From Candidatus Eiseniibacteriota bacterium (lineage in GTDB: Bacteria > Eisenbacteria > RBG-16-71-46 > JACRLI01), in assembly GCA_025351485.1 (NCBI GenBank), contig JANXVU010000094.1, positions 1 through 40,208 on the forward strand: a stretch of 40,208 nt of DNA, read 5' to 3'. This document shows positions 9,528-20,806 of this stretch, piece after piece (position 1 is the stretch's first letter; every line of letters starts with the position of its first letter). Made by a program: the position numbers and the translations under genes. The notes below the pieces were generated by a model that saw nothing but the letters and a program-made list of their open reading frames with translations, was not told the origin of the DNA and ran no database searches.

Positions 9528-9649
9528 TTCCAGTGTGTCCTGGATTCCTTCGCTCCCGGCGGGGTCTGCCGGGGACACGGGCCGGGGAGAGCCCTTCGAG
9601 AATTGCACGCGTTGATGGGAGAGGGTCAGTTTAAGGAAGTAGTCCCACC

Positions 9650-9678
9650 ATCATACCCCCCGCCGGACGCAGCGTCAA
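9650..9678 (-). promoter_or_regulatory. Sigma-70 promoter of the M6 protease / beta-helix unit
   Basis: On the minus strand TTGACG (9678-9673) and TATGAT (9655-9650) are separated by exactly 17 bases, each matching consensus at five of six positions. Transcription would start near 9643 and run through a leader of about 115 bases. Little else in this GC-rich spacer competes with it. Confidence 0.65.
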
Positions 9679-9746
9679 TGCCGCTGTCCCGTCCTTGTAT
9701 TCGCCCGGCGATTGTGTCCGGTACCCGCCCGGACCGCCCCGGTTCG

Positions 9747-9775
9747 TTGTCCGGTCCGGAGCGTTGTGTTAGCCT
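9747..9775 (+). promoter_or_regulatory. Weak candidate promoter of the GWxTD gene
   Basis: TTGTCC (9747-9752) is followed after 17 bases by TAGCCT (9770-9775), only eight bases before the ATG. Spacing is ideal but the boxes match consensus at just four and three positions, and the transcript would be nearly leaderless. Confidence 0.25.
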
Positions 9776-9782
9776 TCGGTGC

Positions 9783-11039
9783 ATGAGGAATCTCCTGCTG
9801 TCCTGCCTGCTGCTTACAGTTCTCGCTCCCGCCGCGTTCGGCCAGATGCCCGGAAGCGAGACCCACCCGGCGTTTCGATGCTCCGCGGTGAGCTTTCGCG
9901 ACACCACCCAGGTTCCCCTGATCGAGATCAGCATCGAGATCCCGCCCTACGACCTGTCCTTCGTTCGCGAGGGCGAGGGCTACCGGGCCGAGATGGACAT
10001 CGCCGTCACGCTGATCAACGAGGACGGGGACGAGGTGGGCGGCGATATCTGGCGACGGCAAGTGGATCTCGTCCGGTACGAGGAGCTGGGCTCCACCGGT
10101 CCGGTGCTTCGGGAAAAGCGGAGTTTCCGGGTGGGGCGCGGCCGCTTCCAGGCCCGGGTGGAGGTCAAGGACCTGAACGCCGGAAGGTCCAGCGTGCAAC
10201 TGGTGCCGGTGGAGGTGGAGGCGCGCAAGGATCCCCACGACATCAGTCTTTCCGATCTGGAGTTCGGTTCGCTGGCGGACTCGACCGGCCCGGCCAAACG
10301 CGGCTCGATCCATCCGGTGGTGGCCCGGGTGTTCGGAAACCCGCTCCCCAGGCTGGGAGTCTATGGCGAGGCCTACGTGGACTCGGCCGCGACCGATTCC
10401 GTGGAACTCCGGATCGAGGTGCGCGACGAAGCCGGGAACAGCCTGGAGCAGGCGCACATGTCGCTGCTGTCGGTCAAGGGCGTCGCCCCGTTCCTGCTTC
10501 GGCCGGCGTTCGAGCGGCTCGCGGTGGGTTCGTACACCCTGGCGGTGGAAGGCCGCTGGGGGAAGAAGAAGACCCGCCGGGAGCAGCGCTTCGAGATGGA
10601 TGAGTCGCGGGTGGACTTCGGCCCGCGCTTCCCCGATCTGCTGGAGGTGGTGGCCCTGATCGCGAGCGGGGATGACCTGGATTCGCTTCGCGATTGCGCT
10701 CCAGCCGACCGGCAGGCCACCTGGACCCGCTTCTGGCAGCGGCGGGCGGGACGCGAAGGGGAGCGGTTCAAGCCCAACGCGAGGGAGTTCTTCCAGCGGC
10801 TGCGCTACGTGAGCCAGCACTTCTCCACGCCGGCCGTCGGGCCGGGATGGCGGACCGACATGGGCCGGGTCTATATGAAGTACGGCGCGCCGGACCAGAC
10901 CGAGTACCACCCGCAGTCCGCCAACGAGTTCGCGAGCCAGGTGTGGTACTACAACGATCCGGGCCGGATCGTGTTCGTGTTCATCGACCGTTCGGGGTTC
11001 GGCCATTATGAATTGGCCAGCCAGCGCGGAGGCGGCTAG
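9783..11039 (+). CDS. GWxTD domain-containing exported protein
   Basis: 418 residues from the ATG at 9783, which opens a signal peptide (MRNLLLSCLLLTVLAPAAFGQ). Upstream in-frame ATGs at 9603 and beyond give a Pro/Arg-rich leader and are rejected. Residues 30-290 are beta-rich with EIPPYDLSF and repeated Ig-like strands. The C-terminal part (about 330-418) is the GWxTD domain: GWRTDMGRVYMKYGAPDQTEYHP, then WYYNDPGRIVFVFIDRSGFGHYEL. This domain is known from FCB and related lineages; its function is not established. The stop codon overlaps the GTG of the NlpC/P60 gene by one base (TAGTG), and GGAGG lies seven bases before that GTG inside this gene's end, so the two proteins are almost certainly co-translated. 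Confidence 0.85.
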   Translation: MRNLLLSCLLLTVLAPAAFGQMPGSETHPAFRCSAVSFRDTTQVPLIEISIEIPPYDLSFVREGEGYRAEMDIAVTLINEDGDEVGGDIWRRQVDLVRYEELGSTGPVLREKRSFRVGRGRFQARVEVKDLNAGRSSVQLVPVEVEARKDPHDISLSDLEFGSLADSTGPAKRGSIHPVVARVFGNPLPRLGVYGEAYVDSAATDSVELRIEVRDEAGNSLEQAHMSLLSVKGVAPFLLRPAFERLAVGSYTLAVEGRWGKKKTRREQRFEMDESRVDFGPRFPDLLEVVALIASGDDLDSLRDCAPADRQATWTRFWQRRAGREGERFKPNAREFFQRLRYVSQHFSTPAVGPGWRTDMGRVYMKYGAPDQTEYHPQSANEFASQVWYYNDPGRIVFVFIDRSGFGHYELASQRGGG

Positions 11040-11854
11040 TGGCGCCATCCGGGGCACACCGCCCGAGACACGCCCTGGTCGCGGTCGCGGTCCTTCCCCT
11101 TCGCTCGAGCCCGGATCACCGCAGCGAACAGGTCACGGACGCCGCCCTGGGCACGCCCTTGCAGGTGCTGGAGCCGGGCGGGGAGTGGTGGCGGGTGCGG
11201 CATCCGGATCGGACCGTCGGCTTCGTTCGCTCCCTGGGAATCCTGGCCTGCACCAAGGCCCGCGCCCGTTTGTTTGCCGCCTCGCCTCGCCTCGCAGACG
11301 TGTCCACCGAACTTCGCCGTGCTCCCCGCTCCGGAGCGTTCCTGAACCTGCCCGCAGGCTCCCGGCTCCCGGCGAGGCGGCCCTCCGGCGGTTGGAACCG
11401 GGTCGAACTCCCGGACGGCAGCCCGGCGGTGCACCGGGGCCGCTTCGCGCGGCCTGCCGCCGCGCGCGGAGGAGCCGCCCTGGTCGGTGCCGCGATGGCC
11501 TATCTCGGCGTTCCCTACATCTGGGGGGGTACGACCGGCTGGGGGCTGGATTGCTCCGGGCTGGTCCGGTTGGCCTGCGACCTGTGTGGCAAGAACCCCG
11601 GCCGCGACGCCCGCGATCAGTTTCGGGTCGGCCGCGCGGTTGGATCCCCCAGGGCCGAGCCGCTCGCGCCCGGGGATCTGCTCTTCTTCGGGGAGACCCC
11701 CGGGGACATCAGCCACGTTTCCATCCACATCGGGGCGGGCCGGTACATTCACTCCTGCGGAAGTGTTCGGCTGAACTCCCTGCAGCCCCAGGACGCGGAT
11801 TATCTTCCGTCCTTTGCGGCCCAATTCCGGGGGGCGCGGCGGCTCTTCTCCTGA
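11039..11854 (+). CDS. NlpC/P60 family peptidase with SH3-like domains (YkfC-like)
   Basis: 271 residues from GTG at 11039. The N-terminal half has two bacterial SH3-like folds (VLPLRSSPDHRSEQVTDAALG... EWWRVRHPDRTVGFV, and a second around PAGSRLPARRPSGGWNRVELPDG). The C-terminal NlpC/P60 domain has the catalytic Cys in LDCSGLV (C172), His in HVSIHIG (H226) and a third polar residue, His, in YIHSCG (H238). AYLGVPYIWGG and PLAPGDLLFFG are typical of the family. The domain order resembles gamma-D-glutamyl-L-diamino acid endopeptidases of the YkfC type, which recycle murein peptides. No signal peptide is visible, so a cytoplasmic or non-classically exported enzyme is likely. Translation is coupled to the GWxTD gene. 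Confidence 0.85.
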   Translation: MAPSGAHRPRHALVAVAVLPLRSSPDHRSEQVTDAALGTPLQVLEPGGEWWRVRHPDRTVGFVRSLGILACTKARARLFAASPRLADVSTELRRAPRSGAFLNLPAGSRLPARRPSGGWNRVELPDGSPAVHRGRFARPAAARGGAALVGAAMAYLGVPYIWGGTTGWGLDCSGLVRLACDLCGKNPGRDARDQFRVGRAVGSPRAEPLAPGDLLFFGETPGDISHVSIHIGAGRYIHSCGSVRLNSLQPQDADYLPSFAAQFRGARRLFS

Positions 11855-11896: not shown

Positions 11897-11925
11897 TTGA
11901 CAAGTCCCCTTAACCTTCCGATGAT
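11897..11925 (+). promoter_or_regulatory. Promoter of the TonB receptor / sorted protein / PorV unit
   Basis: A perfect TTGACA (11897-11902) is followed after 17 bases by GATGAT (11920-11925; four of six, including the key A2 and T6). It lies in an A+T-rich patch that stands out against the GC-rich surroundings. Transcription would start near 11932. Confidence 0.55.
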
Positions 11926-12154: not shown

Positions 12155-14923
12155 ATGAAACGTATCAGCGGATTCGGGAAGGGCGCCTTGCTTGTACTTC
12201 TAGGCGTCTTTTTTGTTGCCGCAAACTCGTGGGCCAGCACCACGGGCAAGCTGGAAGGCGTCGTGACGGATGCGAAGACCGGCAAGCCGGTCCCCTTCTG
12301 TAATGTGACGATTCCCTCCCTGCAGCGCGGCGTGGCCACCGACGAGAACGGCTACTACTTCCTCCTGAACGTGCCCGCCGGGCGCTACGACATCAGGGTC
12401 AGCGTGATCGGATACGAGCCGGTGCTGCGCAGCGGCGTCACCATCGTTCCGGACTTCACCACCCAACTCAACGTGCAATCCGAGCCCACCACCGCCACCA
12501 CCCTCAAGGAGAGGATCGTGACGGGGGAAAGGCCCCTGATCCAGAAGGACGCCACCGGCTCCAGCCGGGTGATCTCGGGCGACGAGATCAAGGCGCTGCC
12601 CTCGCGGGGCTACCGCGACGCCGTGGCCCAGCAGGCCGGCGTGGTCACCCAGGGCCGCTACGCGAGCGACACCGAGGCCCAGAACGCCCCGTCGCTCTAC
12701 CTGCGCGGCGGCCGGTCCAACTCGGTGGCCTACTACGTGGACGGCTTTTCCACCCAGGACGCCCTGACCGGCATCTCCACCACTTCGATCAACCAGAACG
12801 CGGTCGAAGAGGTCTCCACCCTGACCGGCGGCTTCGACGCCGAGTACGGCCGCGTCTCCTCGGGCATCGTGAACGTGATCACCAAGGAAGGCGGCAACAC
12901 CATCAAGGGCAACCTTGAAACGGTGACCGACTACGGCACCGGGCGCTGGATCGGCACCCGCAACTACGGGAACATCACTTACAACGCCGCCGTCAGCGGA
13001 CCGGTGATCGCGGACAAGCTCACGTTCTACCTGGCGGCCGAGGGCCGCAACAACCGCGACCGCTCCCCTCGCCCGGACATCCTGGACGACCAGGGCAACG
13101 TGCTGGCCTCGGGCATTCTGCCCCACAACCAGCTGGCCGGCATCACCTACCAAGGCAAGCTGGCGTGGCGCCCGGACGTGAACACCAACATCAAGCTGTC
13201 GCTCCTTGGGAGCCGGGACAACTGGCAGCGGTACATCAACGCCTATCGCTACGACATTGAGCACACGCCGCGCTACAAGGATGACAACAAGACCGCGTCG
13301 CTCTCCTTGAACCACACGCTGAACTCCACCAGCTACTTCTCGATGGGGATCTCGTACAACTCCAACGAGCGGATCCGCGGGGACGGCGTGTATTTCGACA
13401 CCCTGCTCGCGTACAGCCGGAACTTCCTCGGCGATAACAGCAACCCGCTGTACCAGTTCAACAACGACTTCCTTGCCCCGGGCCACGTGTGGGACGATTT
13501 CTTCCACCGCAAGAGCGGCTACGTGGGCGCCCGGTTGGACTACACCGACCAGTTGAGCCGCCACCACCAGCTCAAGGTGGGCGGCGACTTGCAGCGCCAC
13601 ACGCTGCGCTTTTACAACCACCTGTTCCCGACCGTGCTGGGCCGCTCGGACTACGCGAACAACGACGCGGTCTTCTACGGGTTTGACGCGTTCGGCGAGC
13701 AGACCGACGCGGACTCACTGGGCCTCAACGGCGCCAAGCACCCGCTGCTGGCCTCGCTGTTCGCGCAGGACAAGATCGAGTACGAGGGCCTGATCGCCCG
13801 CGTGGGGCTGCGGTGGGACTACCTTGCCCCGCGCACCGATCGCCTGGTGGATCCGACCAACCCGCTCGATGATGCCGGAAACGTGAAGCTCACGGCCGCC
13901 GAGGCGGCCAGCAAGCTGAGCCCGCGAATCGGCGTATCCTTCCCGGTCACCGACAAGACCGATTTCCGGTTCAATTACGGGCTGTTCTACCAGCTGCCGA
14001 ACCTCCAGGACCTGTACACCAATTACGACTACCTCAAGTACAAGGTCAACACCGGCGGCTATTACTACGCCTTCGGCAACCCGAATCTGGAGCCCGAGCG
14101 CACCACCCAGTTCGAGGTGGGCTTCGCCCAGCAGGTGAACGACCGCAGCGCGGTGGACGTGGCCGTGTGGTACAAGGACACCCAGGGGCTGGTGCAGGTG
14201 AAGAACCAGCCTTCTATCCCGTTCGCGTTTGCCTCGTTCCGAAACCTGGACTTCGGCACGCTGCGCGGCGTGGACGTGAACTACACCATGCGCCGCACCA
14301 ACCACTTCCAGAGCTTCGTCAACTACACCATCTCGTGGGCCCGCGGCACGGGATCGAACCCGCAGTCGCAGCGCAACATCGCCTGGTTCGCCTCCGAGGA
14401 GCCCAAGCTGGTGGCCGCGCTCGACTTCGACGTGCGCCACAAGCTGTCGGCCAACCTCGATTACCTGACCGACCCGCCCACGCCGGACGGTGGGGGCCGC
14501 AACATCCTGGCCAACCTGGACGTGAACGTCCTCTTCAACGCGCAGAGCGGCACGCCCTACACGCCGGTCCGGATCTACGACGAGGCCACCCAGCTGGCGG
14601 TGTCCAACAACGTCATCGGCGACCTCAACTCGCGCTACAAGCCGTGGAACTACACCATCGACTTGAAGGCCACCAAGACCATCCAGCTCACGGATGTGAC
14701 CAATCTCCAGCTGCAGCTCTATGTCTACAACCTCCTGGACCGCTACAACCCGACCAGCGTGTACCTGGGAACCGGTGATCCGTACATCACCGGTTACCTG
14801 AACACGGGCGACGGGCAGAAGCTGGCTCCGGAGGCGCGCAACCTCTACGAAATCGCCCAGCGCGACCCGCTCAACTTCGACAACCCAAGGATGGTGCGCT
14901 TCGGCGCGGTGCTGAACTTCTAA
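12155..14923 (+). CDS. TonB-dependent outer-membrane receptor with carboxypeptidase-regulatory-like domain
   Basis: 922 residues. The ATG at 12155 has AAGGAG eight bases upstream and opens a signal peptide (ISGFGKGALLVLLGVFFVAANSWA). Residues 27-110 are a CarboxypepD_reg-like beta-sandwich (LEGVVTDAKTGKPVPFCNV, ATDENGYYFLLNVPAGRYDI). Residues 120-240 form the TonB plug (ALPSRGYRDAVAQQAGV, LYLRGGRSNSVAYYVDG, GGFDAEYGRVSSGIVNVITKEG). The rest is a 22-strand barrel ending in MVRFGAVLNF with terminal Phe. Such receptors import large or complexed nutrients at the expense of the proton motive force through TonB. No classical TonB box is obvious. The substrate cannot be told. It heads the unit with the sorted protein and the PorV-like barrel; a GC-rich hairpin follows its stop codon. 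Confidence 0.93.
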   Translation: MKRISGFGKGALLVLLGVFFVAANSWASTTGKLEGVVTDAKTGKPVPFCNVTIPSLQRGVATDENGYYFLLNVPAGRYDIRVSVIGYEPVLRSGVTIVPDFTTQLNVQSEPTTATTLKERIVTGERPLIQKDATGSSRVISGDEIKALPSRGYRDAVAQQAGVVTQGRYASDTEAQNAPSLYLRGGRSNSVAYYVDGFSTQDALTGISTTSINQNAVEEVSTLTGGFDAEYGRVSSGIVNVITKEGGNTIKGNLETVTDYGTGRWIGTRNYGNITYNAAVSGPVIADKLTFYLAAEGRNNRDRSPRPDILDDQGNVLASGILPHNQLAGITYQGKLAWRPDVNTNIKLSLLGSRDNWQRYINAYRYDIEHTPRYKDDNKTASLSLNHTLNSTSYFSMGISYNSNERIRGDGVYFDTLLAYSRNFLGDNSNPLYQFNNDFLAPGHVWDDFFHRKSGYVGARLDYTDQLSRHHQLKVGGDLQRHTLRFYNHLFPTVLGRSDYANNDAVFYGFDAFGEQTDADSLGLNGAKHPLLASLFAQDKIEYEGLIARVGLRWDYLAPRTDRLVDPTNPLDDAGNVKLTAAEAASKLSPRIGVSFPVTDKTDFRFNYGLFYQLPNLQDLYTNYDYLKYKVNTGGYYYAFGNPNLEPERTTQFEVGFAQQVNDRSAVDVAVWYKDTQGLVQVKNQPSIPFAFASFRNLDFGTLRGVDVNYTMRRTNHFQSFVNYTISWARGTGSNPQSQRNIAWFASEEPKLVAALDFDVRHKLSANLDYLTDPPTPDGGGRNILANLDVNVLFNAQSGTPYTPVRIYDEATQLAVSNNVIGDLNSRYKPWNYTIDLKATKTIQLTDVTNLQLQLYVYNLLDRYNPTSVYLGTGDPYITGYLNTGDGQKLAPEARNLYEIAQRDPLNFDNPRMVRFGAVLNF

Positions 14924-14934
14924 CGAGGAACGCA

Positions 14935-15060
14935 GGCGGGCCCCTCGCGGGGCCTGCCCGCGGCCTCAAATGGGCGCCGCGAGGAACGTTTGAAAGGTCG
15001 GATCCAGGCTGGCCCCCCGGGGCCGGCAGCAAGTTTCCGCCCGGCGGTCGGGATACCGCC
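14935..15060 (+). promoter_or_regulatory. Three intercistronic hairpins after the TonB receptor gene
   Basis: Three stems lie between the receptor stop (14923) and the next ATG (15083): GGCGGGCCCC/GGGGCCTGCC at 14935-14958 with loop TCGC, an eight-pair stem around 15008-15027, and GGCGGT/ACCGCC at 15043-15060. None is followed by a T-run, so they look like mRNA-processing or attenuation structures rather than terminators. The Shine-Dalgarno AAGGAG of the next gene lies just after the third. Confidence 0.5.
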
Positions 15061-15082
15061 GACAATATCGAAGGAGAGACAA

Positions 15083-18000
15083 ATGAAATGGAAAGGGCTC
15101 GGGGCGGGCGCGTGGGGCATGGCCGCATGCGCGCTCCTGCTTTCGACCGTGGCGCAGGCGAAGATCGACAACTCCCAGCACATCGATGTGAACAGCATCG
15201 ATTGCGTGGTGACGAACCACAACTCCTACGCCTACGACCTCTCGACCGGAAATGCGGGCCTCATCTGGCCGAAGGGGAGCGGCAAGACTGCGGTGTTTGC
15301 CGCCGGCCTGTGGGTGGGAGCCAAGATCGACCTGAACGGCGGCCAGAAGACCATCATCAAGGTCGGTGAGTATTCCCAGCAGTGGGGCCCCGGGCCGATG
15401 GCGGACGGCAAGGGCACGGCCGACGGCCCGTCCAACAAGGTCTACAAGATCCAGCGGGGAGACACTCCGACCAGCAACCCCGACTACGCCAACTGGCCCA
15501 AGGAACTGGGCGCTCCAACGAACGCCGATGGAACCCCGCAGGTCCTGGGAGACGAGACCCTGTGGTCGGTGTTCAATGACCGCTCGGACAAGTCGTCCAC
15601 CAACCGCGCCGGCACGCCCGGGATCACCGACACCAGCTCGCTCGGGATCGAGGTCCAGCAGACCACTTTCGCATTTTCGCGCAGCGGTCCGCTGAACAAC
15701 GTCATTTTCCTGAAGTACCGCCTGATCAACAAGGGCAACAACCACCTGAAGCAGGCGTACGTGTCCGCATGGTCGGACCCGGACCTGGGCGACGCGACCG
15801 ATGACCTGGTGGGATGCGACACCGTGCTTTCGCTGGGATACGTCTACAACGCCACCAACAACGACGGGCTCTACGGTGTCGGGCCCCCGTGCGTGGGCTG
15901 GGACTTCTTCCAGGGCCCGAAGGACAAGGCCACCGGCAAGCGCCTGCCCATGACCTCGTTCAACAAGTACATCAACGGGACCGACCCCCAGTCGCCGATC
16001 CAGACGTACAACTACATGCAGGGCTTGAACCCCGACGGCAGCGACGTGGTGGATCCGAACGGCGTGACCACCAAGTTCATCCACGCCGGCGACCCGGTCA
16101 AGGGCACGGGTTGGCTGGACGCGGACCCGGCCGACCGGCGCCTGATGCTGAGTGCCGGCCCGTTCGACATGGATCCCGGCGACACGCAGGACGTGGTCGT
16201 GGGCCTGATCGTTGGCCGGGGCGGCGACAACAAGTCCAGCATCACGGTGACCAAGCTGCTCGACCGTTCGGCCCAGTTCGCGTTCAATGCCAACTTCGAC
16301 CTGGGCAACCCGCCCCCGGCCCCGAAGGTCACGGTGCGTTCCGAGAAGAACGCGATCGACCTTTCCTGGGATGCCGCCGCGGTGGGCGACCACCAGCACA
16401 AGATCTTCGTGGACTCCAGCCAGACCCCGCCGGCCATCCTGGTGAAGGACTACTGGTTCCAGGGATACAACGTGTGGCAGGCCCGCACGCCTTCGGCGCA
16501 GGACAGGCAGTGGAAGAAGGTCGCGACCTACGACATCGCCTCGGACGCCGACGGCAACGCCGACACCGTCCTGATCATCTACAACGAGTCGGTGGACGAG
16601 CTCACCGGGGCCACGCAGCGCGTGGCCGTCCAAACCGGAACGAACAGCGGCCTGAAGTTCCACTACCGCACCGACACCGACCAGATCAACGGCGGAAGGA
16701 TCGTCAACAACAAGCCCTACTACTTCGCGGTGACGGCCTACAACTACGAGGCGGACAACGGCGTGCCCTATATCGACGCCAACTTCGACGTCTCGAACGG
16801 ACTCATCACCGAGTCGCTGGAGAACAGCCCCTCGGGCCAGGCGCTGACCATCATTCCTGCGTCCACCACCGCCTCCTACGACACGGCGGCGGCGCACGTG
16901 GCCGGCAACGCCGAGGTCACGGTCAACGTGAGCTTCTTCCGTCCCGATTCAGCCAACGACCACCTCTTCGAGGTCAGCTTCATCGACAACGCGGATGGCA
17001 GCGCGCTGCTGTGGCGCCTGACCGACCTGACCACCCACACGGTGGTCCTGGACAGCCAGTCAGACTTCACCGGCGTGCTGCACGAGGATGTGGCGTTCAA
17101 GAATTTCGAGGTGGCGGTGACCCTGCCATACCTCATTTCCTCGGCCACCTATTCCCCGCCCGACAATAACCCGTTCCACGGCGAATCCGGGACTGTGTTT
17201 GGCGGCGGACTGGACCTGGCGGAGGCCTTCTTCGGCACTTCCCTGAAGCAGCCGGACCTCGTCCCGATCGAGCTTCGATTTGATCCGGCCAATGGGCAGA
17301 AGGGCTATGGGTACCTCCGGCACGGTGATCCCAGCTACAGCTACCAGGGCTTCGGCACGGTTCCGTTCAAGGCCTATGACGTCTCCAATCCCGCGAGCCC
17401 GCGGCAGATCAACGTGGCATTTGTCCAGAACAAGGAAGACACCACCAACAACGATCCTCCGCGGTGGCTGCCCAGCACGAGTGCCGAGAACAGCGGTGGC
17501 CGGGAGTATCTCTTCGTTCTCAAGTCCAGTTATTCCGAGACGGAAATTCCGGACTACACAACCAAGAACATCCGCGACGACGCCGGCAGCGTCGACATGA
17601 TGTACGCCTTCTGGCTCAGCCGGAATGTGGGCGCCGACAAGCTGCCGCTCAATCCGCAGAAGGGCGACGTGATCCAGGTGCTGCTGCACAAGGCCCTGAC
17701 CAAGAGTGACCGGTTCCAGTTCCACTACCTGAAGCCGGGCTCGGGCCAGGGCACGGTGGTGGACAACGACCTCAAGCGGATCCGCGTCGTGCCCAACCCT
17801 TACTACGTGCATTCGATCTACGAGGTCAGCCAGTTCTCGAGAATTGTCAAGTGGACGCACTTGCCCAACGTGAAGGTCACGATTCGCGTCTTCAACCTGG
17901 CGGGCGATCTCATCCGCACGCTGGTGAAGGATGACGTTTCCGCGGCCGAACTGACCTGGAACCTGCTCAACGAGAGCCGGCTCCCGGTGGCCAGCGGCGT

Positions 18001-18091
18001 ATACATCTATCACGTGGACGCCGGGGCGCTCGGCACCACCTTCGGACGCATGGCGGTCTTCCTGGAGCGCGAGAAGATCAACTTCTTCTAG
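15083..18091 (+). CDS. Large secreted protein with type IX-like C-terminal sorting domain
   Basis: 1,002 residues. The ATG at 15083 follows AAGGAG by six bases and begins a signal peptide (MKWKGLGAGAWGMAACALLLSTVAQA). The N-terminal domain (NAGLIWPKGSGKTAVFAAGLWVGAKI) is a motif I associate with a family of large FCB exported proteins of unknown role; KGSGKT here is not a P-loop ATPase, because the protein is exported. Around 340-600 there is a fibronectin III-like region (KVTVRSEKNAIDLSWDAAAV... NNKPYYFAVTAYNYEA). The C-terminus (IRVVPNPYYV, VTIRVFNLAGDLIRTLVKDD, SGVYIYHVDAG, GRMAVFLE) is a FlgD-Ig/T9SS sorting domain, ending KINFF. It probably sits on the cell surface, working with the receptor before it and the PorV-like barrel after it. 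I cannot name a biochemical function. Confidence 0.75.
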   Translation: MKWKGLGAGAWGMAACALLLSTVAQAKIDNSQHIDVNSIDCVVTNHNSYAYDLSTGNAGLIWPKGSGKTAVFAAGLWVGAKIDLNGGQKTIIKVGEYSQQWGPGPMADGKGTADGPSNKVYKIQRGDTPTSNPDYANWPKELGAPTNADGTPQVLGDETLWSVFNDRSDKSSTNRAGTPGITDTSSLGIEVQQTTFAFSRSGPLNNVIFLKYRLINKGNNHLKQAYVSAWSDPDLGDATDDLVGCDTVLSLGYVYNATNNDGLYGVGPPCVGWDFFQGPKDKATGKRLPMTSFNKYINGTDPQSPIQTYNYMQGLNPDGSDVVDPNGVTTKFIHAGDPVKGTGWLDADPADRRLMLSAGPFDMDPGDTQDVVVGLIVGRGGDNKSSITVTKLLDRSAQFAFNANFDLGNPPPAPKVTVRSEKNAIDLSWDAAAVGDHQHKIFVDSSQTPPAILVKDYWFQGYNVWQARTPSAQDRQWKKVATYDIASDADGNADTVLIIYNESVDELTGATQRVAVQTGTNSGLKFHYRTDTDQINGGRIVNNKPYYFAVTAYNYEADNGVPYIDANFDVSNGLITESLENSPSGQALTIIPASTTASYDTAAAHVAGNAEVTVNVSFFRPDSANDHLFEVSFIDNADGSALLWRLTDLTTHTVVLDSQSDFTGVLHEDVAFKNFEVAVTLPYLISSATYSPPDNNPFHGESGTVFGGGLDLAEAFFGTSLKQPDLVPIELRFDPANGQKGYGYLRHGDPSYSYQGFGTVPFKAYDVSNPASPRQINVAFVQNKEDTTNNDPPRWLPSTSAENSGGREYLFVLKSSYSETEIPDYTTKNIRDDAGSVDMMYAFWLSRNVGADKLPLNPQKGDVIQVLLHKALTKSDRFQFHYLKPGSGQGTVVDNDLKRIRVVPNPYYVHSIYEVSQFSRIVKWTHLPNVKVTIRVFNLAGDLIRTLVKDDVSAAELTWNLLNESRLPVASGVYIYHVDAGALGTTFGRMAVFLEREKINFF

Positions 18092-18134
18092 TCGCGGACC
18101 TCACGATTCAAGGACGATAGGAGGCAACGAGCCT

Positions 18135-19169
18135 ATGAAACGTATACTCCTCGCGGCGGCCCTGCTTGCGGCCGTCACCGGAATCTCCCGGGCCGGGACG
18201 GACACGCGCACCGGCACGGCCGGCGCTTCGGAACTCCGCATCCCGGTCGGGACGCGCACTTCGGCGCTGGGCGGCGCATCCATCGCGGACGTCCAGGGCG
18301 CCGAGGCGGCGTTCTGGAACCCGGCGGGCATCGCCATGTCGGAGCACAGTGAAGCTTACGTTTCGCACATGCGCTACTTCGCGGACATGAAGCTGAACTA
18401 TGTCTCGCTGCTGTACCGCACGGACGGCGCGGGCACGCTGGGCTTCTCGGTCAAGGTGCTGGACGTCGGCGACATCATCGTCACCGACGAAAGCAATCCG
18501 GAGGGCACCGGCCAGGTCACTGCGCCGACGTTCACCGTGATCGGGCTGTCGTACGCGCGGCGCTTTACCGACCGCGTGGCATTCGGCGGCACGATCCAGC
18601 TGGTGAACGAGTCCGTGCTCCAGGAGACCTCCAACGGCCTGGCGTTCGACCTGGGCTTCCAGTACGCGCTCAACTGGCACGGCATGCGGGTGGCGGCGGT
18701 GCTGAAGAACTGGGGACCGCAGATGCACTACGACGGCGCGGATCTTGAAAGCTTCTTTATCCCCAACGGGGCGCGTCCGGATGCCAATCCGCGCAGCTTC
18801 AAGGCCATTTCGGCCGACTTTGAAATGCCCGCGCAGGCCCAGATCGGCGTGACCGGAAACCTCTACTCGCAGGAGGGCCACCGGGTTTCGGCGGCGTTCT
18901 CCTTCGTGAGCAACAACTTCTCCAAGGACGAGTACCACGGCGGCCTGGAGTACAACTACGACAACACGCTGTTCGTGCGCGCGGGGTATTCGTACTCCAA
19001 CGCCAAGGACGCGCTGACCTCCGACAACAGCTACCTGTACGGTCTCACCGGCGGAGCGGGCATTTCCTGGCCGCTGGGGGAAAACCGGGTGGACATCGGC
19101 TACAACTACACGCAGCTGAAGAATTACTTCGACTCCAACCACACGTTCAGCCTGCGGTACCTGTTCTAG
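18135..19169 (+). CDS. PorV/PorQ-family outer-membrane barrel protein
   Basis: 344 residues from the ATG at 18135, ten bases after AGGAGG, with a signal peptide (MKRILLAAALLAAVTGISRAG). The first mature residues, GTRTSALGGASIADVQGAEAAFWNPAGIA, carry the NPAG motif and small-residue turn seen in FadL-related PorV/PorQ (UPF0164) proteins. The remainder is alternating beta-strand ending FSLRYLF with terminal Phe. In type IX secretion PorV takes sorted cargo from the translocon to the attachment complex at the cell surface. Placed directly behind a protein with a sorting domain, it is likely a dedicated or shared shuttle for it. Alternatively it could be a plain FadL-like channel. A strong terminator follows. 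Confidence 0.85.
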   Translation: MKRILLAAALLAAVTGISRAGTDTRTGTAGASELRIPVGTRTSALGGASIADVQGAEAAFWNPAGIAMSEHSEAYVSHMRYFADMKLNYVSLLYRTDGAGTLGFSVKVLDVGDIIVTDESNPEGTGQVTAPTFTVIGLSYARRFTDRVAFGGTIQLVNESVLQETSNGLAFDLGFQYALNWHGMRVAAVLKNWGPQMHYDGADLESFFIPNGARPDANPRSFKAISADFEMPAQAQIGVTGNLYSQEGHRVSAAFSFVSNNFSKDEYHGGLEYNYDNTLFVRAGYSYSNAKDALTSDNSYLYGLTGGAGISWPLGENRVDIGYNYTQLKNYFDSNHTFSLRYLF

Positions 19170-19251
19170 GGAGTTTATCGGACGTTCTCGTGGACCGGGC
19201 ACGTCCACACGCCGCCGCCTGAAGCCATCGGGCCAGGGCGGTGGAAAGTGG

Positions 19252-19281
19252 AGGGAGGGGGGCGAGCGTCCCCCTCCCTTT
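19252..19281 (+). terminator. Terminator of the TonB receptor / sorted protein / PorV unit
   Basis: AGGGAGGGGG (19252-19261) pairs over ten bases with CCCCCTCCCT (19270-19279) around an 8-nt loop, followed by TT. It ends 20 bases before the ATG of the S13 peptidase gene. Confidence 0.65.
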
Positions 19282-19300
19282 CGCTATCCGGGGGGAATGC

Positions 19301-20806
19301 ATGATCCGACATCAAGGCTGGCCACGGGCCGCGGCGCCGGCGCTGCTGGCCGCGCTCCTGCTGGCCGCGCTCCTGCTGGCCGCTCCCGCGATGGCAGGCA
19401 GCCTTTCCAAGCACGTCCGCAAGGTGGCCGAGGCGGGCTCGGAGGGCGGCGGCTGCTGGGCCGTGGTGGTCCGGCCGCTGGACGAGGAAGCCGGCCACGG
19501 GAACAGCTTCGAGCAGGACTCCCGCCGGCGGCTGCTGGGGGCGTCCACCTGCAAGCTCTTCACCTGCTATGCCGCGGCCTCCGTGCTGCCTCCCGACACG
19601 TCCCTGGCCACGCTGCTGGTGGCCCGTGGGCGGCTCGAGGGACGCACGTGGATCGGTTCGCTTCGCGTTTACGGCGGAGGCGCCCCCGGGATCCTCTCGT
19701 GGGAGTCGCTTCAGGGCGCGGCCGCCCCGGAGACCGGCGCGCTGGTCCTGGAGCGGTTGGCCAGGCTGGCGCGCTCCTCGGGCATCGACACCCTGGCCGG
19801 AGAGATCGTCGCCGAGGAGATGTCCTTCTTCCCGGGGGACTCGCTGGGACCCGGCTGGGAGTGGGACGACCTCGCCTGGTACTACGGAACCAAGGTGACC
19901 TCGCTGGCGGTGGATGACAACGCGCTGGAGGTCCGCTTCGAGGAGGGCCCCGGCGGGATCGAGGCGCACACCCGGGCCTTGCCGCCGGGCTGGAGGGTGG
20001 AGTGCCGGCTCATGGAACAGGGTCCGGGCCCGCCGGATATCCAGTCCCGCTGGATTGGGCCCACCACGCTGGAGTTGACGGGGCGCCTCGCCCGCGGGGA
20101 CGCGGGCCACCTGGAACGCCCGGCGATCGCGCGCCCCGATCTGTACGCCCGGGACCGGTTCCGTGAGGCCCTGGGCCGTGCGGGCATTGCCGTGGTGGCG
20201 CCCCGGGGCGCCGGCGCGGCTTCCGACTCGCAGTGGACGCTCGGCGCAGTGTCTTCGCCCGCGCTGGCGCAGGTCTACCACCCGATCCTGGCGCGGAGCC
20301 AGAACCTGCGCGCCGAGCAACTGCTCCGGGTGCTAGGGATGGCGCGGATCGCAGAGGGCACCGCGGCCGCGGGACTGGAAGTGGTCCGCCGTGCGCTGGC
20401 CGGCCTGGGCCTCGGGGAAGCGGACGTGTGGCTCCTGGACGGCTGCGGGCTTTCGCGCCACGACTTGGTGACCGCCGATGCCCTGGCCCGCGTGCTGGCG
20501 GACGCCTCGAGGCGCGCCGATGCGGGCGATGCCGGCATGCACGACATGCTCGCGGGCCTCGCCCTGCCTGGGGAAGAGGGGACGTTCCGCTCGCGCTTCA
20601 CCGGGGAAAAGTGGCCCGGCGCTCCGGGCTGGATCCGCGGAAAGACCGGCTCCATGGACGGCGTGGACGCCTTCGCGGCCATCGTGGCCGGGGAGGAAGG
20701 CAGGCGGTTCGTGGTGGTGAGCATCCGCAATCACTTCCCGGAGACCCGCTCGGAGGCGCACGCGTGGGAAGATCGGCTGGTCCGCTCGGTGGCCGGCCTG
20801 GAGTAG
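19301..20806 (+). CDS. dacB: D-alanyl-D-alanine carboxypeptidase/endopeptidase, S13 (PBP4) family
   Basis: 501 residues. The ATG at 19301 follows GGGGGA and opens a signal peptide whose hydrophobic core (LLAALLLAALLLAA) is built from a 15-bp tandem repeat. All three serine-acyl-transferase motifs are present: SxxK as STCK (S82), SxN as SQN (S333) and KTG in RGKTGSMDG (K near 448). The long insert between motifs one and two, about 250 residues, is that of class C PBPs. It should trim or cut D-Ala cross-links in periplasmic peptidoglycan. The central motif segment, RSQNLRAEQLLR, fits the S13 form. No promoter is obvious between the upstream terminator and its start. It converges with the glutamate dehydrogenase gene and shares its terminator. 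Confidence 0.88.
   Translation: MIRHQGWPRAAAPALLAALLLAALLLAAPAMAGSLSKHVRKVAEAGSEGGGCWAVVVRPLDEEAGHGNSFEQDSRRRLLGASTCKLFTCYAAASVLPPDTSLATLLVARGRLEGRTWIGSLRVYGGGAPGILSWESLQGAAAPETGALVLERLARLARSSGIDTLAGEIVAEEMSFFPGDSLGPGWEWDDLAWYYGTKVTSLAVDDNALEVRFEEGPGGIEAHTRALPPGWRVECRLMEQGPGPPDIQSRWIGPTTLELTGRLARGDAGHLERPAIARPDLYARDRFREALGRAGIAVVAPRGAGAASDSQWTLGAVSSPALAQVYHPILARSQNLRAEQLLRVLGMARIAEGTAAAGLEVVRRALAGLGLGEADVWLLDGCGLSRHDLVTADALARVLADASRRADAGDAGMHDMLAGLALPGEEGTFRSRFTGEKWPGAPGWIRGKTGSMDGVDAFAAIVAGEEGRRFVVVSIRNHFPETRSEAHAWEDRLVRSVAGLE

What the first reader, a model, noticed from the sequence alone, without database searches (positions are those of the whole stretch)
12155..19169. TonB receptor, sorted 1,002-residue protein and PorV/PorQ barrel form one isolated transcription unit
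Seen: three consecutive plus-strand genes with a TTGACA promoter before and one terminator after, each product with a signal peptide, the middle one ending in a FlgD-Ig/T9SS-like domain. Known: PorV shuttles T9SS cargo. Inference: the barrel is dedicated to the adjacent cargo, and the three make an uptake or display system of unknown substrate. This is the best candidate here for an undescribed system.
Basis: partly seen in the sequence, partly recalled or inferred. Interest (0 to 1): 0.65.

Follow-up and report, generated by a model that had tools for sequence, protein, structure and literature searches.

The report
Three-gene outer-membrane capture-and-import unit

Summary
The three genes are real: TonB-dependent receptor (12155-14923), a 1,002-residue Pfam-less secreted protein ("Mid", 15083-18091) and a PorV/PorQ-family barrel (18135-19169). 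(1) Of 47 genomes in the phylum, 21 carry the orthologous triad contiguous, in the same order and strand; 8 more are cut only by contig ends; none shows another arrangement. Same-order triads also occur in marine Flavobacteriales genomes and on plasmid pRMAR01 of the cultured Rhodothermus marinus. (2) Mid's C-terminus is a T9SS sorting domain, closest to those of PorZ and PorU, the two cargoes whose tails stay bound to PorQ/PorV. The genome has SprA and a PorU-PorV operon. A paralogous triad, homologous over Mid's full length, sits directly before a beta-1,2-glucanase-like gene in 13 genomes (GH94 in three checked), and no SusD family is found in any of the 47 genomes. Best reading: a SusCD-like uptake complex whose surface partner is delivered by T9SS and anchored by a dedicated barrel. 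The window triad's substrate is unknown; a DD-carboxypeptidase follows it in 7 genomes. Promoter evidence is at chance level; structure predictions failed; no binding or transport was tested.

The parts
12155..14923 (+). TonB-dependent receptor with N-terminal CarboxypepD_reg domain, plug and beta-barrel (922 aa)
   Evidence: Pfam PF00593, PF07715, PF13620/PF13715; orthologues 43-50% identical directly upstream of Mid across the phylum
15083..18091 (+). 'Mid': secreted protein of 1,002 aa, non-lipoprotein signal peptide, no Pfam family, T9SS-type C-terminal domain
   Evidence: full-length homology to the paralogous Mid2 family, hhalign 100%, E 4.8e-55
15155..16387 (+). N-terminal conserved region of Mid (about residues 25-435), with motifs such as GLWxG and SDPDLGxxxDDLVGCD; probable functional (ligand-facing) part
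   Evidence: alignment of 11 homologues; also found alone in stand-alone T9SS proteins; function inferred
17753..18088 (+). C-terminal sorting domain of Mid
   Evidence: matches the genome's Por secretion tails, PorU tail, PorZ and TIGR04183
18135..19169 (+). PorV/PorQ-family outer-membrane barrel (344 aa), proposed dedicated shuttle/anchor for Mid
   Evidence: NF033709 175.6 bits, below the cut-offs of PorV, PorQ and PorV2 equivalogs; orthologues directly downstream of Mid
11897..11925 (+). promoter-like site TTGACA-17-GATGAT
   Evidence: not above chance expectation
19242..19290 (+). GC-rich hairpin after the third gene, possible terminator or spacer
   Evidence: z -3.65; weak T tract
19301..20806 (+). 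Peptidase_S13 (DacB/PBP4-type DD-carboxypeptidase), linked to the triad in part of the phylum
   Evidence: Pfam 218.6 bits; directly downstream of the PorV orthologue in 7 of the 13 genomes that have S13

Best explanation
The three proteins form one outer-membrane uptake unit. The receptor is a TonB-energised channel. [quoted passage not shown] Its C-terminal domain is then taken, and probably kept uncleaved, by the adjacent PorV-family barrel, as PorQ keeps PorZ and PorV keeps PorU. This holds Mid on the surface next to or over the receptor, where its conserved N-terminal region captures the substrate and hands it to the channel: a functional counterpart of SusCD without a SusD or a lipid anchor. 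Shown: gene content, conserved order, homology of the tail, full-length homology of paralogous Mids, a T9SS in the genome, absence of detectable SusD families, and linkage of a paralogous triad to beta-1,2-glucan enzymes. Inferred: physical complex, tail retention, import direction. Unknown: the substrate of the window's triad.
For: Order receptor-Mid-barrel contiguous in 21 of 47 genomes from several families, 8 more cut at contig ends, no counter-arrangement of the orthologue. Same-order triads in marine Flavobacteriales (L048-L051) and Rhodothermus marinus pRMAR01. Paralogous triad contiguous in 11 genomes and followed by a PF10091 gene in 13, with GH94 in L034, L096 and L097 and LacI regulators in three loci; [quoted passage not shown] PF07980 and PF14322 absent in 47 of 47 genomes with a positive control in Bacteroides. 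SprA 498 bits; PorU 438.8 bits next to a PorV. Mid tail closest to PorZ/PorU, whose tails stay bound to PorQ/PorV (PMC10202324). Cognate downstream barrels are known for type B cargo (PMC12618676, PMC9143113). Signal peptides of Mid homologues lack a convincing lipobox.
Against: No direct evidence of complex formation; both structure predictions were too poor to use. The window's triad has no glycan enzyme beside it. Type A-like cargoes in F. johnsoniae share one PorV and are cleaved, so a private PorV is an extrapolation. Two genomes carry solitary Mid paralogues without barrel or receptor (G028:C35, G030:C164), so Mid-type proteins can exist without the pair. SusD-like_2 and other SusD models were not searched.
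Confidence: 0.58

Rival explanations
1. Mid is a surface-displayed structural or adhesive protein carried by its own barrel; the receptor acts in envelope sensing or assembly rather than nutrient import.
For: Type B cargoes with cognate barrels are known or predicted adhesins (PMC12618676); stand-alone relatives of Mid's N-terminal region carry PKD and Ig domains.
Against: The receptor is as conserved in the unit as the barrel, and the paralogous unit sits in beta-1,2-glucan loci.
Confidence: 0.17
2. Mid is a surface enzyme acting on a polymer, and the receptor imports its products; the barrel is its secretion shuttle.
For: Conserved acidic motif DPDLGxxxDD in the N-terminal region could be catalytic or calcium-binding; large secreted protein beside an importer.
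Against: No Pfam, NCBIfam or PDB enzyme match; paralogous loci supply separate enzymes.
Confidence: 0.12
3. The third barrel is a FadL-type transporter of hydrophobic compounds and is merely co-transcribed with a receptor and its cargo partner.
For: Weak Toluene_X/FadL match; PorV belongs to the FadL superfamily (PMC9143113, PMC12578637).
Against: PorV/PorQ family model scores 175.6 bits; the barrel follows a protein with a T9SS tail in the window, C83, C10, C30 and C69 loci of the same genome.
Confidence: 0.07
4. The window's unit takes up cell-wall fragments (a sub-case of the best explanation, about the substrate).
For: Peptidase_S13 directly follows the triad in 7 genomes, with 2 more compatible at contig ends; NlpC/P60 precedes it in the window; in R. 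marinus the triad is followed by Amidase_2 and a beta-lactamase-like serine hydrolase.
Against: Most triad-bearing genomes of the window's order show no S13 match; in Flavobacteriales the neighbours are housekeeping genes.
Confidence: 0.15

Closest known systems
SusCD / RagAB-type uptake complexes of Bacteroidota
   Same: TonB-dependent receptor with CarboxypepD_reg domain encoded next to a large surface partner; paralogous triads sit in loci with glycan enzymes and a LacI regulator
   Different: partner is not SusD (PF07980 and PF14322 absent in the phylum), appears not to be a lipoprotein, carries a T9SS tail and comes with its own PorV-family barrel
SprB-SprF and other type B cargo with cognate PorP/SprF barrels
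   Same: secreted cargo immediately followed by a cognate FadL-family barrel proposed to extract and anchor it
   Different: tail is type A/PorZ-like and the barrel is PorV/PorQ family, not PorP/SprF; a receptor is added
PorZ-PorQ and PorU-PorV of the T9SS attachment complex
   Same: cargo with a PorZ/PorU-like tail paired with a PorV/PorQ-family barrel; in P. gingivalis these tails are retained
   Different: Mid matches PorU and PorZ only in the tail; the pair is multiplied in the genome and joined to a TonB receptor
Ignavibacterium album beta-1,2-glucan gene cluster (PMC8861115)
   Same: GH144, GH94 and a presumed TonB transporter, like the paralogous triad locus C83
   Different: the passages read do not describe a Mid or PorV-like partner; the window's own triad has no such enzymes

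Membership tests
SusCD complex | SusC-like TonB-dependent receptor with N-terminal CarboxypepD_reg domain and plug | tested here: met
SusCD complex | adjacent SusD-family partner (PF07980 / PF14322) | tested here: not met
   Mid has no Pfam match; 0 of 47 genomes
SusCD complex | partner is a surface lipoprotein with lipobox cysteine | tested here: not met
   signal-peptidase-I-type N-termini in homologues, by inspection; the window Mid has a cysteine inside its signal peptide but cleavage at AQA-K is more likely
SusCD complex | substrate-degrading enzymes in the locus | tested here: inconclusive
   not in the window locus; present at the paralogous triad
T9SS type A cargo | Sec signal plus C-terminal sorting domain TIGR04183 | tested here: inconclusive
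   window tail 19.9 bits, cut-off 23; all 8 orthologues match, best 2.2e-6; profile match to the genome's tails 96.8%
T9SS type A cargo | host encodes T9SS translocon and sortase | tested here: met
   SprA; PorU above cut-off beside PorV
T9SS type A cargo | shared PorV shuttle and cleavage of the tail by PorU | not testable with these tools
   needs mutants and proteomics
T9SS type B cargo with SprF barrel | TIGR04131 tail and PorP/SprF-family barrel | tested here: not met
   NCBIfam scans give PorZ/PorU/type A tails and PorV-family barrels only
PorV/PorQ family | NF033709 above cut-off | tested here: met
   175.6 vs 90 bits
PorV, PorQ or PorV2 equivalogs | score above equivalog cut-offs | tested here: not met
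   73.8/250, 107.8/220, 74/325 bits

The most novel reading that the evidence does not exclude
A separate, widespread class of TonB-dependent uptake complex in Bacteroidota-related phyla: the surface ligand-capturing lid is neither SusD nor a lipoprotein but a T9SS-exported protein permanently held by a private PorV-type barrel, with several substrate-specific paralogues per genome. It would make PorV-family paralogues anchors of importers rather than only secretion shuttles.
Probability: 0.42. Interest if true: 0.82.

Novelty: new variant of a known kind. Interest (0 to 1): 0.64.

Why it matters
If true, it links two machines treated as separate, protein secretion by T9SS and TonB-dependent nutrient import, into one unit, and explains how a phylum with TonB receptors but no detectable SusD could capture large substrates. 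It also gives a role to the many PorV/PorQ-family paralogues in such genomes, and it is testable in a cultured bacterium, Rhodothermus marinus, which carries the unit on a plasmid.

Tried and rejected
Structure prediction of Mid (mean pLDDT 28) and of its tail (pLDDT 51): the permitted alignments were too shallow; no fold search was run on them. Rfam search for a riboswitch upstream that might name the substrate: nothing. PDB sequence search with the Mid profile: only a weak PorU tail hit, E 0.083. A search centred on the Flavobacteriales genome was not accepted by the tool, so Bacteroidota-wide prevalence was not measured. Two scripts failed and the script machine was lost, so no trees or co-evolution tests were made. 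A PorU tail comparison with wrong coordinates was discarded and repeated. Idea that the three genes are adjacent by chance: rejected. Literature searches found no existing description of such triads in the open-access library, which does not cover most subscription papers or preprints.
Full report
What is there. The window is one whole contig (C111) of a 3.44-Mb genome in 186 contigs, 98.6% complete. Three plus-strand genes lie at 12155-14923, 15083-18091 and 18135-19169, with gaps of 159 and 43 bases. The first is a TonB-dependent receptor with CarboxypepD_reg domain, plug and barrel. The second, here called Mid, has no Pfam family. The third is a member of the PorV/PorQ family (NF033709, 175.6 bits, cut-off 90) but of none of the named equivalogs PorV, PorQ or PorV2. 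All three start with plausible Sec signal peptides. The promoter claim is at chance level. A strong hairpin follows the third gene, with a weak T tract.

Conserved adjacency. I searched each of the three proteins separately against all 47 held genomes of the phylum (35 genera, 11 families) and compared coordinates. The orthologous triad is contiguous, same order, same strand, in G000, G001, G002, G016, G019, G020, G022, G024, G026, G027, G029, G032, G034, G037, G038, G040, G041, G042, G044, G045 and G046 (21 genomes; in G029 and G046 the receptor is cut by a contig end). In G003, G006, G018, G021, G030, G031, G033 and G039 the triad is interrupted only at a contig end (contig lengths checked for most). 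No genome shows the type-1 orthologue in another arrangement. Identities to the window are about 39-47% over full length for Mid, 43-50% for the receptor and 38-46% for the barrel. Solitary, more divergent Mid paralogues occur in G028:C35 and G030:C164, next to unrelated genes. Stand-alone T9SS proteins in several genomes share only Mid's N-terminal region at about 50% identity, for example L089:6191-8632, where it is joined to PKD and Ig domains.

Beyond the phylum. Full-length Mid relatives (25-29% identity) in marine Flavobacteriales assemblies L048-L051 also lie between a TonB receptor and a PorV-family gene, same order; L052 ends inside Mid. In Rhodothermus marinus DSM 4252 plasmid pRMAR01 the order is TonB-dependent receptor RMAR_RS14120, hypothetical protein RS14115 and PorV/PorQ family protein RS14110, the last two overlapping. 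RS14115 matches the C83-type Mid at 32% over 86% of its length.

Paralogous units in the same genome. C83 (L034) has receptor, Mid2, PorV; C46 (L036) has receptor, PorV, an NHL-repeat protein, Mid-like; C10 (L033) has a Mid-type tail before a PorV at a contig end. The Mid and Mid2 families are homologous along 860 columns (hhalign 100%, E 4.8e-55). The C83-type triad is contiguous in 11 genomes, and a PF10091 gene follows its PorV directly in 13 (G000, G001, G016, G018, G019, G020, G022, G023, G024, G026, G030, G031, G032); other C83-type loci stop at or near contig ends. In G000, G020 and G022 a GH94 protein comes next; a LacI regulator is present in the G000, G024 and G032 loci and a second PF10091 gene in several. 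The PF10091 protein of C83 carries a T9SS tail and its closest solved relatives include XCC2207 and endo-beta-1,2-glucanase 5gzh; XCC2207 is studied as XcSGL in a paper on beta-1,2-glucanase families (PMC12102758). [quoted passage not shown] A comparable gene set in Ignavibacterium album was proposed to use a TonB-dependent transporter (PMC8861115). So the paralogous triad most likely imports beta-1,2-glucan fragments, which is the best functional anchor for the architecture.

T9SS connection. The genome encodes SprA (498 bits with neighbours) and a PorU above cut-off (438.8 vs 420) directly followed by a PorV, plus 26 Por secretion tail matches. Mid is not among those 26, but its tail matches a profile of eight of them (96.8%, E 2.3e-10) and the genome's own PorU tail (96.8%, E 2.5e-10). 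All eight orthologous tails match the TIGR04183, PorU and PorZ models, PorZ best (3e-10). PorU and PorZ are the cargoes whose tails are not removed: PorU's stays on PorV and PorZ's on PorQ, and it has been suggested that handling by cognate PorV-like barrels protects tails from cleavage (PMC10202324). For type B tails, a cognate PorP/SprF barrel encoded directly downstream is needed for secretion and proposed as anchor (PMC12618676, PMC9143113), whereas type A tails in F. johnsoniae share one PorV. The window's unit therefore combines a type A/PorZ-like tail with the one-cargo-one-barrel organisation known for type B.

No SusD. The two main SusD models, PF07980 and PF14322, have no match in any of the 47 genomes, with a positive control in Bacteroides. 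Mid homologues have signal peptides without a convincing lipobox, so they need another anchor. This fits Mid plus barrel taking the place of SusD.

Substrate of the window's unit. Open. No riboswitch or glycan enzyme is adjacent. A Peptidase_S13 gene directly follows the triad in G000, G038, G040, G041, G042, G044 and G045; G039 and G046 are compatible at contig ends; in G001, G002, G003 and G006 S13 lies elsewhere, and the other 34 genomes show no S13 match at the threshold used. The R. marinus unit is followed by an Amidase_2 protein and a beta-lactamase-like serine hydrolase. Peptidoglycan fragments are therefore a lead, not a conclusion.

Limits. No interaction, secretion or transport was tested. 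Structure models were too poor to use. Bacteroidota-wide prevalence was not measured. Counts of genomes rest on coordinate comparison by hand after the script machine was lost.

Noticed in passing
L034:2010-19217: Putative beta-1,2-glucan utilisation locus: LacI regulator, TonB receptor, Mid2, PorV, PF10091 enzyme with T9SS tail, GH94, second PF10091 enzyme.
   Followed up: partly
L120:5521-18000 (R. marinus pRMAR01): Receptor-Mid-PorV triad on a plasmid between type III-A and type I-U CRISPR gene sets, followed by Amidase_2 and beta-lactamase-like proteins.
   Followed up: partly
window 11039-11854 and 19301-20806: The triad lies between an NlpC/P60 protein with SH3 domains and a DD-carboxypeptidase (S13), both cell-wall enzymes.
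   Followed up: partly
L036:3767-10683: Variant order in the same genome: receptor, PorV, NHL-repeat protein, then a Mid-like protein.
   Followed up: no
L089:2601-8632: N-terminal region of Mid at about 50% identity joined to PKD/Ig domains and a FlgD-type tail, overlapping the end of an FG-GAP protein gene that also has a T9SS-type tail.
   Followed up: no
L094:4863-6371: G019 has a second, short Mid-like gene (502 aa) directly after the PorV gene of its triad; G021:C405 appears to have the same.
   Followed up: no
window 9603-11039: GWxTD-domain protein directly upstream of the NlpC/P60 gene; another weak GWxTD match follows the PorV gene at C10 (L033:2792-4399).
   Followed up: no
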